Below, in pieces: positions 21,507 through 29,506 of a DNA stretch of 64,000 nucleotides; within the stretch, counting starts at the first letter, position 1, and each line of letters opens with the position of its first letter. The DNA comes from an uncultured Prochlorococcus sp. (lineage in GTDB: Bacteria > Cyanobacteriota > Cyanobacteriia > PCC-6307 > Cyanobiaceae). Location: the NCBI RefSeq assembly GCF_902626525.1, contig NZ_CACOFR010000005.1:44409-108408 (forward strand). The letters run 5' to 3'. The notes under the pieces were generated by a model, which saw only the letters and a list, made by a program, of their open reading frames with translations, searched no databases and was not told where the DNA came from. The position numbers and the translations under genes are program-made.

Positions 21507-21578
21507 TCCTCGGTAGCTCAGCGGTAGAGCGATCGACTGTTAATCGATTGGTCGCAGGTTCGAATCCCGCCCGGGGAG
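21507..21578 (+). tRNA. tRNA-Asn (anticodon GTT)
   Basis: TCCTCGG ... CTGTTAA ... GGTTCGAATCC ... CCGGGGA G; acceptor stem pairs 7/7 including one T-G; CCA not encoded. Confidence 0.97.
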
Positions 21579-21720
21579 TTTTATTCAAACATCAGTAGTA
21601 ATCAAGAGACTCCATTCGGGGTCTTTTTTTTTGCAAGCACTAGAACTTTCAAAATTTAGAACGTCACCCGACCTCAGGATACCTCAAAAAAAAGATAAGA
21701 AATGGGTTTTTTTATGGGTT
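21574..21720 (+). repeat. Left copy of the tRNA-flank direct repeat
   Basis: GGGAGTTTTATTCAAAcATCAGTA...AGAGACTCcattcGGGGTCTTTTTT...AAGCACTAgAACTTTCAAAATTTa... matches 29372-29506 with scattered substitutions and indels. Confidence 0.8.
21606..21632 (+). terminator. Rho-independent terminator downstream of tRNA-Asn
   Basis: GACTCC-attc-GGGGTC stem followed by a T tract. Confidence 0.8.
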
Positions 21721-21834
21721 ATAGCTCTTTTCAAAAATGTGTTTTTTTATGCAACGTTTTGAATTCTAGTAGTTGATATTTAATCTAAATCGAAAAGCAA
21801 CAGCCTCCTTTTTTCTGGCTAAAAAATAGAAAAA

Positions 21835-24800
21835 CTAACTTGCTACTAATTCCTCTCCAAGAGTTTCTGCTTGTTGAAGGACAGTTTCAACTGCAGCAAT
21901 TTGTTCATCTGGCGGATACTTATATCTTTTCAAAAGGGTTTTGATTTTGAGTCTCAGTTTTGCTCTAACATTTTCTTTATATTGCCAATCAATATTTGCA
22001 TCTTTTCTCATAATTTCTGCAAGTTCTTTTGCCATATTTGCAAGAACTTCTTCTTTCATTAGTTCATTTGCAGAGGGATTATCTGCAAGAGCATCATAAA
22101 AAGATTGTTCTGCGGAAGATAAACCTAATGCAATTCCACGTTCTAAATCTTCTCGGAATTTTTTTGCCATTGCTATAAGTTCTTCTATAACTTGTGCTGC
22201 TTCTATTGCTCTATTTTTATATTTATTCAATGATGCTGAAAGCATTTCACTAAAGTTTTTTTGTTTGACTACATTTGTTCTGAATTTACTTTTCACTTCA
22301 TCATTCAGTAGTTTCTGGAGCAACTCAACTGCTAAATTTTTTTGAGGGATCTTACTTACTTCTGATAAAAATTCATCTGACATGATACTTATATCTGGAT
22401 TCTTCAGACCAGCTACTTTGAATACGTCAGTTATGCCATTAGAGACTAAAGATTCAGATAGAAGTTGTTGTAATTCAAATCCGTAATCTTTAGGTGGACT
22501 TCCTGCAATATCTCCTTTTATAAGCATTGCTCTTATTGCTTGTAGGAATGCTATTTCAGGACTATGTTCTATTGCTGCATCAGTTGTTCCACATAGTGCA
22601 AATGCTTTGGTGATTTTTAGAACTGTATCGCAATATCTTTGTTTCCCATCATCTATTTCTAGAATGTGATCAAGACAATTTGGAATAATTTCTAATGCTT
22701 TTCCTTTCTCTCTAAAGTGCATCCATTCAACTGGATGCAGTAAATCTTTTGCGATCTGTATTTGTTCGAGAAGTATACGAACTGCTTCACTTGTATCAAG
22801 AGTTGGTTTTCCTGTTCCGTTTGCTGCTGTGTAAGTAGCGAGTGCTTCTTTTAGTTGTGGAGCAATACCTATGTAATCAACAATCAATCCACCTGGTTTA
22901 TCCTTGAAAACTCTATTGACTCTTGCAATTGCTTGAGCAAGATTTGCTCCTTTCATTGGTTTGTCTACGTACATAGTTGCTAAACAAGGTGCATCAAAAC
23001 CTGTCAACCACATATCTCTTACAAGAACCATTTTGAGTGGATCATTTGGATCTTTGAATCTGTTTTCTAAATCCTTTTTTTGTTGTTTGTTTGTGTGATG
23101 AGGTTGAAGAAGTTTCGACTCCGATGCAGATGCGGTCATAACAACTTTTACAGAACCTTTCATGTGATCTTCATCTTTCCATTCTGGTTTGAGTGAGACT
23201 ATCTCGTTGTAAAGACGTGCACAGATTTCTCTGCTCATTCCAACAATCAGTGCTTTTCCAGGTTGTGTTTTAGATCTTTGTTCATAGTGGGAAATTAGAT
23301 CTTTGGCTACTTGTTTCAGTCGAGGTTCTGCTCCTACTAAAGCTTCTAATGCTGCCCATCTGCTTTTTGCTTTTTCAGTAGAAGAAATATCATCTTCATC
23401 TTCAAATATTTCATCAAACTTACTATCTAAAGTCGGAGTACTACTTTCTTTGAGTTTTAGTTTTGCCAATCTTGACTCGTAATAAATCGGAACTGTTGCC
23501 CCATCATCTACTGCTTGCTGAATGTCATAAACAGAAACGTAATGACCAAAGACTGCCTGAGTATCTCTGTCATCTTGAGAAATTGGAGTTCCTGTAAAGG
23601 CTAAGAAAGTTGCGTTTGGAAGAGCATCTCTAAGTCCTTTTGCTAATCCATATTTCACTTCTCCTGTCTTTGAATCAATTCTTCCTTTGAAACCATATTG
23701 AGTTCGATGTGCTTCATCACAAATAACCACAATATTTTTTCTATCAGTCAATGCAGGGAATTTTTCTTCATCCTTTTCTGTTGCAAATTTTTGAATGGTT
23801 GTAAAAATAATTCCTCCACTAGGTCTGTTATCTAATAGATCTCTTAGATCTTTTCTTGATTCTGCTTGCTTAGGTTTCTCTCCTAATAAATCACCAGAAC
23901 CAGTAAATACACCAAATAACTGACCATCAAGATCTTGCCTGTCAGTAACCATCACTAAAGTTGGATTTTGAAGTCTTTTATCGGTTAGCAATTTTCCTGC
24001 AAGGCATGCCATTTCAATGCTTTTGCCTGCACCTTGGGTATGCCAAACTACTCCACCTTTGCGATCACCATCAGGTTTACTTGCTTCTATGACTCTTTCA
24101 ACTGCTGTATTTACAGCATGAAACTGATGATAAGCAGCAATCTTTTTGATAATTTCTTTTTCTTCTTCGAAGACACAGAATGAACGTATGAAATCTAATA
24201 ATCTTTTTTTATCGAATAATCCTCTAACTAAAGTTTCTAGTTGTTTGAACTTTCCAAGTGGATCCAAATCTTGTTCTTTTTCAATAACTCTCCATTGCTG
24301 GAATCTTTCTTCATTCGCAGAAATTGATCCTACTTTTGCATAAGTTCCATCACTAATTACTAATAGAACATTGGGAGTAAATAAATCAGGAATATCTACT
24401 TTATAAGTTCTTAGTTGGTTGAAAGCATCCCAAATATCAGTTTTTGCATTTGCTGGATTCTTGAGTTCAATTACAGCTATTGGGAGACCATTTATATAAA
24501 TAACAACATCTGGTCTTCGATTATTTTTTGGACCATGAATTGCTAATTGGTTGACTACTAACCAATCATTGTTATCAGGATTATCAAAATCAATTATCTT
24601 TAGGCGGATTCCAATTTCTTGGTTACCTTCTATGTATGTAATAGGAAGTCCTTTGGTCATTAATATATGAAACTGACGATTAGATGCAACTAATCCAGGA
24701 ATATTAGAATTCGTAATTTGAAGAACTGCTGCATCAATAGTTTTTGTTGGAACTTTAGGATTTAGTCTGATTAGTGCTGATTTCAAACGCTCTAATAGAA

Positions 24801-24936
24801 AGACTTGTCTCAGATCATCTCTCTCTGGAGATCTCCCATCTGGTGCAATATCTGGACCATGAGCATATTGATATCCAAGATCTACAAACCATTCAAGTGA
24901 ATTATTTTCTAAAAGTTCTTCATTTATCAAGGACAT
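21835..24936 (-). CDS. hsdR: Type I restriction endonuclease subunit R
   Basis: 1033 aa; nuclease-like VIELKNPANAKTDIWDAFNQLRTYK, Walker A VVWHTQGAGKSIEM, VICDEAHRTQYG, AFTGTPIS. Confidence 0.95.
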   Translation of the reverse strand: MSLINEELLENNSLEWFVDLGYQYAHGPDIAPDGRSPERDDLRQVFLLERLKSALIRLNPKVPTKTIDAAVLQITNSNIPGLVASNRQFHILMTKGLPITYIEGNQEIGIRLKIIDFDNPDNNDWLVVNQLAIHGPKNNRRPDVVIYINGLPIAVIELKNPANAKTDIWDAFNQLRTYKVDIPDLFTPNVLLVISDGTYAKVGSISANEERFQQWRVIEKEQDLDPLGKFKQLETLVRGLFDKKRLLDFIRSFCVFEEEKEIIKKIAAYHQFHAVNTAVERVIEASKPDGDRKGGVVWHTQGAGKSIEMACLAGKLLTDKRLQNPTLVMVTDRQDLDGQLFGVFTGSGDLLGEKPKQAESRKDLRDLLDNRPSGGIIFTTIQKFATEKDEEKFPALTDRKNIVVICDEAHRTQYGFKGRIDSKTGEVKYGLAKGLRDALPNATFLAFTGTPISQDDRDTQAVFGHYVSVYDIQQAVDDGATVPIYYESRLAKLKLKESSTPTLDSKFDEIFEDEDDISSTEKAKSRWAALEALVGAEPRLKQVAKDLISHYEQRSKTQPGKALIVGMSREICARLYNEIVSLKPEWKDEDHMKGSVKVVMTASASESKLLQPHHTNKQQKKDLENRFKDPNDPLKMVLVRDMWLTGFDAPCLATMYVDKPMKGANLAQAIARVNRVFKDKPGGLIVDYIGIAPQLKEALATYTAANGTGKPTLDTSEAVRILLEQIQIAKDLLHPVEWMHFREKGKALEIIPNCLDHILEIDDGKQRYCDTVLKITKAFALCGTTDAAIEHSPEIAFLQAIRAMLIKGDIAGSPPKDYGFELQQLLSESLVSNGITDVFKVAGLKNPDISIMSDEFLSEVSKIPQKNLAVELLQKLLNDEVKSKFRTNVVKQKNFSEMLSASLNKYKNRAIEAAQVIEELIAMAKKFREDLERGIALGLSSAEQSFYDALADNPSANELMKEEVLANMAKELAEIMRKDANIDWQYKENVRAKLRLKIKTLLKRYKYPPDEQIAAVETVLQQAETLGEELVAS

Positions 24937-28906: not shown

Positions 28907-29212
28907 TTACCTTCCTATTTGTGAAACCATGCCTTTCTTGAGTTCCTTTTGATATGCCTCCTTGCTCGAGAGTATTATATCTTCAATCGAGAATTTATTA
29001 AATAATGACTTTCCTATTTGTGAACCCACACCTTTGTTATTGAGTTCCTTTTGATATGCCTCTTTGCTTGAGAGTATGATATCTTTAATCGAGAATTTAT
29101 TAAATAATGACTTTCCTATTTGTGAAACCATACCTTTCTTGAGTTCCTTTTGATATGCCTCTTTGCTCGAGAGTATGATATCTTCAATCGAAAATTTATT
29201 TAATAATGACAT
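28907..29212 (-). CDS. Tandem-repeat hypothetical protein (three ~33-aa repeats)
   Basis: MSLLNKFSIEDIILSSKEAYQKELKKGMVSQIGK / SLFNKFSIKDIILSSKEAYQKELNNKGVGSQIGK / SLFNKFSIEDIILSSKEAYQKELKKGMVSQIGR. Confidence 0.5.
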   Translation of the reverse strand: MSLLNKFSIEDIILSSKEAYQKELKKGMVSQIGKSLFNKFSIKDIILSSKEAYQKELNNKGVGSQIGKSLFNKFSIEDIILSSKEAYQKELKKGMVSQIGR

Positions 29213-29220
29213 TTTTATTT
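28911..29220. repeat. Tandem DNA repeat, units of about 99-102 bp
   Basis: TTCCTATTTGTGAA...CCTTTTGATATGCCTC...GAGAATTTATTAAATAATGA recurs at 28912, 29011 and 29113, with a degenerate continuation at about 29210. Confidence 0.9.
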
Positions 29221-29371
29221 GTGAAAATTGCTTTGTAGATGATCGTTTAAGTTCTTAATTCTTTTATAACCCATAGCAATTTGCACTTCAACTGTGTGAG
29301 ATCTTTTTTACTAAAAATTATATCAACTTCAGTCAGGCACTTTCAAAAAATATCACCCTGACTATCGCACA

Positions 29372-29506
29372 GGGAGTTTTATTCAAAAATCAGTAACAAT
29401 AAAGAGACTCTACTAGGGTCTTTTTTATTAAAAGCACTACAACTTTCAAAATTTAAGACCTCAGAATACGCAAAAAAAATAATAAATGGTTTTTTTATGG
29501 TTTTTA
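29372..29506 (+). repeat. Right copy of the tRNA-flank direct repeat (attR-like)
   Basis: GGGAGTTTTATTCAAAaATCAGTA...AGAGACTCtactaGGGTCTTTTTT...AAGCACTAcAACTTTCAAAATTTa aligns to 21574-21720. Confidence 0.8.
29406..29426 (+). terminator. Orphan terminator inside right repeat copy
   Basis: GACTC-tacta-GGGTC followed by T6; same stem context as the tRNA-Asn terminator but no gene directly upstream. Confidence 0.65.

What the first reader, a model, noticed from the sequence alone, without database searches (positions are those of the whole stretch)
21507..29506. Type I R-M island bracketed by direct repeats of the tRNA-Asn 3' flank
Seen: the last bases of tRNA-Asn (GGGAG), the terminator and ~100 bp of downstream flank (21574-21720) recur, diverged but collinear, at 29372-29506. 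The ~7.8 kb between holds hsdMSR, three small coupled ORFs and a tandem-repeat ORF, with core genes on both sides. Known: elements integrating at tRNAs duplicate the tRNA 3' end, and Prochlorococcus has tRNA-associated integrative elements (tycheposons). Inference: this is an integrated or remnant defence island. No integrase is visible, so it may be a cargo-only or decayed element, or one mobilised in trans.
Basis: partly seen in the sequence, partly recalled or inferred. Interest (0 to 1): 0.72.

Follow-up and report, generated by a model that had tools for sequence, protein, structure and literature searches.

The report
Tandem mobile units at a tRNA-Asn gene
In the marine cyanobacterium Prochlorococcus, the DNA just behind one tRNA gene collects small mobile units, each with its own terminator and apparent recombinase-binding ends; here the unit carries a restriction (anti-phage) system, while in other strains the site is empty, holds other genes, or holds units of about 200 bp that are nothing but the ends.

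Summary
The repeat is real, but it is not the far end of the hsd island. The tRNA-Asn to DUF7326 interval in 93 genomes (window included) is an integration hotspot: 32 empty, 48 with 64 units lying between copies of the tRNA 3' end (CGCCCGGGGAG), 13 unresolved. Units share one plan: core, terminator about 46 nt in, 11-bp-phased iterons about 124 nt in, cargo, iterons about 92 nt before the end, core. The hsd unit spans 21579-28806; its right end matches the intact right end of an hsd unit at the same site in genome G147. The repeat at 29366-29506 is the left end of a third, decayed unit; a second lies between. Seven genomes carry a lambda-type tyrosine recombinase at this site, one beside hsdRMS; the window genome lacks it. 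Near-identical hsd cargo sits at tRNA-Ser in another genome, between different ends. Eighteen units are only 169-257 bp: in effect bare attP sites. Inference: units with lambda-type attP ends, inserted by an integrase supplied by another unit; cargo moves between ends. The kind (tRNA-associated integrative and cis-mobilisable elements, tycheposon-like) is known; the fixed ends and attP-only units look like a new variant. No excision was shown.

The parts
21506..21579 (+). tRNA-Asn (gtt), the integration target; its 3' end 21568-21578 (CGCCCGGGGAG) is the left core
   Evidence: ARAGORN; core shared by right ends of units in 48 loci
21579..28806 (+). Unit 1: the hsd unit, 7228 bp, core to core
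   Evidence: Core scan and comparison with the intact unit of G147
21605..21633 (+). Terminator-like hairpin brought by unit 1 (GAGACTCCATTCGGGGTC then T-run)
   Evidence: Same position in 88 of 94 units
21701..21748 (+). Left-arm iterons of unit 1 (AATGGGTTTTTTT at 21701, AATGTGTTTTTTT at 21736)
   Evidence: Pattern scan; geometry as in other units
21835..24936 (-). hsdR, type I restriction endonuclease subunit, 1033 aa, intact
   Evidence: Pfam HSDR_N, SWI2_SNF2, T1RH-like_C; PADLOC REase_I
24936..26213 (-). hsdS, specificity subunit, 425 aa from the ATG (432 aa from an upstream TTG)
   Evidence: Pfam Methylase_S
26218..27801 (-). hsdM, modification subunit, 527 aa
   Evidence: Pfam N6_Mtase and HsdM_N
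27905..28601 (+). orfA (27905-28108), orfB (28105-28278), orfC (28275-28601): overlapping small genes that travel with hsdM
   Evidence: ORFs; homologues beside hsdM in other genomes
28687..28723 (+). Right-arm iterons of unit 1, three copies 12 bp apart
   Evidence: Pattern scan; last copy starts 95 nt before the right end, as in other units
28796..28806 (+). Right core of unit 1, CCCCCGGTGAG, two mismatches and a 4-nt insertion before it: decayed
   Evidence: Alignment with G147
28807..29376 (+). Unit 2, decayed, 570 bp; holds the tandem-repeat ORF 28907-29212 (-); right core 29366-29376
   Evidence: Core scan and end types
29377..29534 (+).
   Evidence: Alignment with 21568-21752; iterons
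30321..30402 (+). First stretch recognisable as the chromosomal flank of empty sites; the DNA between 29535 and here is unassigned remnant
   Evidence: nhmmer with the empty-site model
30466..30825 (-). Conserved DUF7326 gene, right border of the hotspot
   Evidence: Pfam; synteny

Best explanation
The 3' end of tRNA-Asn is a chromosomal attB. Integrative units insert there one behind another. Each carries a copy of the last ~11 nt of the tRNA, so the tRNA is rebuilt at every insertion, and each brings its own terminator. Unit ends work as the two arms of a lambda-type attP: phased 11-bp direct repeats about 124 nt inside the left core and about 92 nt inside the right core are arm-type binding sites, and the tRNA 3' end is the core site, for a 414-439 aa heterobivalent tyrosine recombinase encoded by a minority of units. 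Most units, including the window's hsd unit (21579-28806), carry only ends plus cargo, or ends alone, and owe their insertion to a recombinase supplied by another unit, past or present. Cargo is replaceable and has moved between ends for different tRNA genes. In the window the hsd unit sits in front of two older, decayed units and its right core is damaged, so it is probably fixed there as a working type I restriction system. Shown: the array, cores, terminators, iteron geometry, empty sites, integrase units at the same site, related cargo at two tRNA sites. Inferred: iteron = arm site, mobilisation in trans, restriction activity.
For: Empty against occupied sites and displaced chromosomal flank. 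Right end of the hsd unit defined by G147. 64 right cores, 58 with at most two mismatches; one such match in the other 54 kb of the window. Terminator at a fixed place in 88 of 94 units against 114 of 620 random internal windows. Repeat spacing 11/12/22/23/33/34 in 67 of 97 pairs, 1.6 expected; 35 of 45 cargo units share a 9-mer between arms against 29.5% of cross pairs; 11-bp peak in both arms and none mid-unit. Integrases at tRNA-Asn in seven genomes, forming related clades. Model with an N-terminal three-strand-plus-helix domain and best PDB match full-length lambda integrase on DNA. No such integrase in the window genome or in 17 other genomes with units, controls positive. hsd cargo 87-89% identical at tRNA-Ser in G110 between different ends.
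Against: No excision, circle or binding was observed. Only about a tenth of sampled genomes hold this integrase family and none of the window family's own iteron type (ATGGGTTTTYTT) was found on an integrase unit. The loci compared are from different species, not near-identical cells. The cognate link between iteron type and integrase type is suggestive only (G081 and G112 share TTACTAGTCTTTT). 13 loci and the stretch 29535-30320 remain unparsed. Model pTM is only 0.46.
Confidence: 0.82

Rival explanations
1. One island inserted once, bracketed by an attL/attR duplication of the tRNA flank at 21574 and 29372.
For: The two copies are collinear over ~185 bp.
Against: The copy at 29366 is a unit's left end with terminator and iterons, not the chromosomal flank of empty sites; the hsd unit's own right end is at 28796-28806.
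Confidence: 0.06
2. The array is a fossil: units inserted long ago by integrases on board, which then lost the gene; the attP-sized units are deletion scars between the iterons of the two ends and nothing moves in trans.
For: Several small units match a cargo unit at both ends (G174 against G030 95%/89%; G136 against G143 88%/84%) and have one iteron array where cargo units have two. The window right core is damaged. In G069 a small unit sits behind a cargo unit with like ends.
Against: A scar still keeps a complete attP and so remains a substrate. Sites vary from genome to genome, with many perfect cores (31 of 64). Single-contig genomes with three different units and no integrase (G041) need three separate losses.
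Confidence: 0.35
3. The iterons are not integrase arm sites but binding sites of another protein, such as a replication initiator, an excisionase or a host factor.
For: 11-bp phased direct repeats also mark replication origins; iteron sequences differ between families.
Against: Attp-sized units keep iterons at fixed distances from the cores without any gene; the integrase has a candidate arm-binding domain.
Confidence: 0.25
4. The hsd genes arrived by homologous recombination between flanking core genes, and the repeats are duplicated terminators.
For: Unit ends of window and G147 are more alike (88-95%) than the hsd genes (64-85%), as exchange within a shell would give.
Against: Units are bounded by the tRNA 3' end in 48 loci, with unrelated cargo and integrases; empty sites are clean.
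Confidence: 0.05

Closest known systems
Tycheposons (Hackl et al. 2023, doi 10.1016/j.cell.2022.12.006; not held here, known through PMC10872708 and recall)
   Same: Prochlorococcus elements at tRNA genes with partial tRNA copies, cargo, and in full units a tyrosine recombinase
   Different: The window unit has no recombinase; tRNA-Asn could not be checked against the published seven tRNA genes; attP-sized units and fixed iteron arms are not described in what I could read
Integrase-defined element of marine picocyanobacteria (PMC10187409)
   Same: Tyrosine recombinase modelled on lambda integrase, frequently near a small serine recombinase, variable island with restriction systems
   Different: Reported at tRNA-Phe or tRNA-Cys; the units here are at tRNA-Asn (and tRNA-Ser); sequence identity of the integrases could not be compared
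Cis-mobilisable elements and tandem accretion, e.g. Dehalococcoides ssrA islands (PMC3146451)
   Same: Tandem units bounded by repeats of an RNA gene 3' end, many without a recombinase, next to units that have one
   Different: Dehalococcoides uses a serine recombinase at ssrA; here a lambda-type tyrosine recombinase, arm-like iterons, own terminators, and units of ~200 bp with no gene
Lambda-type attP
   Same: Core flanked by arms with direct-repeat arm sites; integrase with an N-terminal arm-binding domain; attP of about 240 bp (general knowledge)
   Different: Integrase only 12-13% identical to lambda integrase in the structural match; the core is the tRNA 3' end; arm sequences are unrelated
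Type I restriction-modification system (hsdR, hsdM, hsdS)
   Same: All three subunits intact with the expected domains
   Different: Linked to a conserved trio of small unknown genes

Membership tests
Type I restriction-modification system | R, M and S subunits with motor/nuclease, N6-methyltransferase and specificity domains | tested here: met
Type I restriction-modification system | Active methylation and cleavage | not testable with these tools
   Needs methylome or assay
tRNA-associated integrative element | Unit bounded by the tRNA 3' end and a copy of it, with empty sites in relatives | tested here: met
   (the window's right copy is degenerate)
Tycheposon | Hallmark tyrosine recombinase on the element | tested here: not met
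   None in the window unit; none of this integrase family in its genome. Other units at the site do carry one
Tycheposon | Insertion at one of the published tRNA genes; published hallmark gene set | not testable with these tools
   Defining paper not in the library
Cis-mobilisable element (CIME) | att-bounded, no recombinase, in tandem with an element that has one | tested here: inconclusive
   Met in G050, where an integrase unit is followed by two integrase-free units; the window array has no integrase unit
Cis-mobilisable element (CIME) | Mobilisation by the neighbouring recombinase | not testable with these tools
   Needs detection of excision
PMC10187409 integrase element | Small serine recombinase near the integrase | tested here: met
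   Resolvase homologues in all four parsed integrase loci; not in the window unit
PMC10187409 integrase element | Same integrase sequence family, tRNA-Phe or tRNA-Cys site | tested here: inconclusive
Lambda-type (heterobivalent) integration | Arm-type direct repeats on both sides of the core at fixed distance | tested here: met
   (sequence evidence only)
Lambda-type (heterobivalent) integration | Integrase with an N-terminal arm-binding domain | tested here: inconclusive
   Model shows three strands plus a helix; no Pfam arm-domain hit

The most novel reading that the evidence does not exclude
The bare ~170-260 bp attP units are themselves mobile shells: cargo is loaded into and lost from between the iteron arrays, and an integrase supplied by another unit inserts, excises and reorders the units, making the tRNA-Asn site an integron-like cassette array in which the tRNA plays the part of attI.
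Probability: 0.22. Interest if true: 0.85.

Novelty: new variant of a known kind. Interest (0 to 1): 0.62.

Why it matters
How Prochlorococcus islands gain and lose genes is an open question, and one report on such an integrase element says the mechanism of its mobilisation is not yet known (PMC10187409). Here the anatomy that a mechanism needs is laid out: a defined attB, an 11-nt core, arm-like repeats at fixed distances, units carrying the integrase at the same site, and integrase-free units of minimal size. It turns gene flow of a defence system into a testable two-component reaction (integrase plus att DNA) and shows one restriction cargo carried between two kinds of ends at two tRNA genes.

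Tried and rejected
Single island bracketed at 21574 and 29372: rejected. The window genome's only PF00589 protein (389 aa, beside ferrochelatase-like, cobalamin adenosyltransferase-like and uridylate kinase-like ORFs, read by eye) as the trans integrase: proteins of that length recur in most genomes of the genus, empty sites included, and it lies apart from the tRNA-linked ones in the tree; not excluded, but no link found. Viral contigs with this integrase: none confirmed. PDB by sequence: none. Annotated phages: only distant integrases, about 24% identity. orfA-C as mobility genes: they travel with hsdM, not with integrases. Papers on tRNA-Asn islands in cyanobacteria or on miniature attP elements: none found. 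G010 contig 30 has hsd pieces in both orientations, perhaps an assembly chimera; not used.
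Full report
OBSERVATION. tRNA-Asn is at 21506-21579. 21568-21752 and 29366-29534 align collinearly with score 192; 500 shuffles reach at most 56, and no other tile of the window is comparable. In the whole genome only these two places match well. Between them lie intact hsdR, hsdS and hsdM, three overlapping small ORFs and an ORF with 99-102 bp tandem repeats.

THE LOCUS IN RELATIVES. I located the upstream ABC gene in 200 genomes of the genus, fetched the downstream DNA of a subset and parsed tRNA-Asn to the DUF7326 gene. 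With the window that makes 93 loci: 32 empty, 48 with at least one core-bounded unit (64 units in all), 13 with no recognisable second core. Empty sites share one chromosomal flank. In many occupied sites that flank is found displaced downstream, directly after a copy of CGCCCGGGGAG, the tRNA 3' end. Of 64 right cores, 31 are perfect and 27 more have one or two mismatches; the other 54 kb of the window contain one such match on both strands together.

WHERE THE HSD UNIT ENDS. Genome G147 has an hsd unit at the same site with hsdR 75%, hsdM 70% and orfA/B/C 96/84/96% identical to the window's. Its right end runs into a perfect core and the chromosomal flank. The ~70 nt before that core match the window up to 28795 almost base for base; the window core there reads CCCCCGGTGAG, with four extra bases before it. 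So the window's hsd unit is 21579-28806 (7228 bp), with a damaged right core. The chromosomal flank is recognisable only from 30321. The locus is an array, not one island.

ANATOMY OF THE UNITS. (a) A terminator-like hairpin in the first 90 nt in 88 of 94 units, T-tract mostly 45-50 nt from the core; random internal windows 114 of 620. (b) Short direct repeats near both ends: of 97 close repeat pairs, 67 are spaced 11, 12, 22, 23, 33 or 34 bp, 1.6 expected; the last repeat starts 89-95 nt before the right end in more than half of the cases, the first mostly 113-130 nt after the left core. Autocorrelation peaks at 11 bp in both arms and is flat in the middle of units. (c) 35 of 45 cargo units share a 9-mer between their two arms, against 29.5% of cross pairs. 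The window's hsd unit fits: repeats at 21701 and 21736, and at 28687, 28699 and 28711, that is about 122 nt from the left core and 95 nt from the right end. (d) 18 units are 169-257 bp with no ORF above 48 aa; several match a cargo unit of another genome at both ends. Their size is that of a complete lambda-like attP (general knowledge: about 240 bp).

THE INTEGRASE. Four parsed loci hold a tyrosine recombinase of 414-439 aa: G050, G081, G179 and G035. In G035 the unit is 14.6 kb and also carries hsdR, M and S, though that hsdR is only 34% identical to the window's. G021 (tRNA-Asn beside it) and, by their DUF7326 and response-regulator flanks, G110 and G189 carry the same integrase at the same site. 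In a tree of 25 recombinases the five close relatives form a supported clade all at tRNA-Asn, and all seven tRNA-Asn proteins fall in a clade of ten; site labels are more clustered than in any of 200 shuffles (quick tree). The alignment keeps R, K, (H)xxR and Y. A model (mean pLDDT 80, pTM 0.46) has a three-strand-plus-helix N-terminal domain like known arm-binding domains, and its best PDB matches are full-length lambda integrase on DNA. The window's genome has none, nor have 17 other genomes with units at this site, while three control genomes rang. A 389-aa recombinase is found in most genomes; I have no evidence that it acts here.

CARGO MOVES BETWEEN ENDS. G110 has hsdR 89% and hsdM 87% identical to the window's, behind tRNA-Ser, between a different terminator, different 11-bp repeats (GTAGTGTGGGG) and a different core (CACCCTCTCCG); DNA homology to the window starts at 21830, at the hsdR stop codon. 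Cargo has therefore been exchanged between ends of different tRNA specificity. The orfA-C trio lies beside hsdM in several genomes, including type I systems only 33-36% identical to this one, so it belongs to the restriction module. Other cargo: helicase-nuclease defence genes, sugar and methyltransferase genes, giant repeat proteins.

MECHANISM. Most likely: heterobivalent integrases encoded by a minority of units recombine the core using arm sites in the unit ends; units without the gene were inserted by an integrase supplied by another unit, or have lost it; each insertion goes in next to the tRNA, pushes older units away and supplies a new terminator. The fixed geometry and shared arm sequences argue for arm sites; binding, excision and trans action are inferred. 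For the window copy, the decayed right core and missing integrase suggest it is now fixed.

COMPARISON AND NOVELTY. The kind is known: tRNA-associated integrative elements, cis-mobilisable elements and accretion (PMC3146451), tycheposons (summarised in PMC10872708), and a picocyanobacterial integrase element with a small serine recombinase whose mobilisation is described as not yet known (PMC10187409; reported at tRNA-Phe and tRNA-Cys). I do not file the window unit as a tycheposon: it has no recombinase, and the defining paper could not be read. New as far as I could check: the fixed attP-like ends across unrelated units, the attP-sized units without cargo, and closely related restriction cargo between two kinds of ends. 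From memory, genome lengths suggest G050 = MIT0604, G108 = AS9601 (empty site), G171 = MIT9301, G041 = MIT9215, G022 = MIT9515; not verified.

LIMITS. Drafts and single-cell genomes dominate; the loci are from different species; cores with more than two mismatches were missed unless the chromosomal flank followed, so unit counts are approximate. The Pfam and PADLOC tallies list only the commonest families.

Noticed in passing
window:27905-28601; homologues in L206, L209, L210, L214, L215, L233: A trio of overlapping small genes (orfA-C; orfC cysteine-rich) sits divergently beside hsdM in several genomes, even next to type I systems whose HsdM is only about 35% identical. No Pfam or PHROG family of known function; perhaps a regulator or partner of the restriction system.
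   Followed up: partly
window:28907-29212: Reverse-strand ORF of three ~33-aa repeats (NKFSIEDIILSSKEAYQKEL...), 99-102 bp in DNA; relatives in tRNA-linked islands of G022 (L232), G042 (L080) and G097 (L224).
   Followed up: partly
G000:C4:45561-46016 (L119:862-2031): A 389-aa tyrosine recombinase beside ferrochelatase-like, cobalamin adenosyltransferase-like and uridylate kinase-like genes, apparently a conserved single gene in most genomes of the genus. Function unclear.
   Followed up: partly
L156, L157, L158: Tyrosine recombinases of 454-491 aa directly downstream of a GMP-synthase-like gene in three genomes: possibly a protein-gene 3' end used as attachment site instead of a tRNA.
   Followed up: no
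L120-L147 (many): A 320-360 aa recombinase with strong PF00589 score next to a tRNA-Tyr/tRNA-Thr pair in many genomes, seemingly at one conserved place.
   Followed up: no
L050, L075, L092, L101, L112, L114: Six tRNA-Asn loci share a 105-aa membrane-like ORF, mostly in units of ~975 bp with the same ends: a small cargo family spread over genomes.
   Followed up: no
L046, L053, L081, L160, L169: Very long repeat proteins (up to 1960 aa, partly truncated by contig ends) as cargo at this site; RTX, beta-propeller and cadherin repeats appear in the cargo tally.
   Followed up: no
window:24936-26213 against L047: hsdS is far less conserved (about 40-50% DNA identity over much of it) than hsdR/hsdM (64-85%) and the unit ends (88-95%) between window and G147, as expected for swapped recognition specificity.
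   Followed up: partly
G000:C11:97-504 (L246): The window genome has one small serine recombinase, at a contig edge, not near the tRNA-Asn locus.
   Followed up: no
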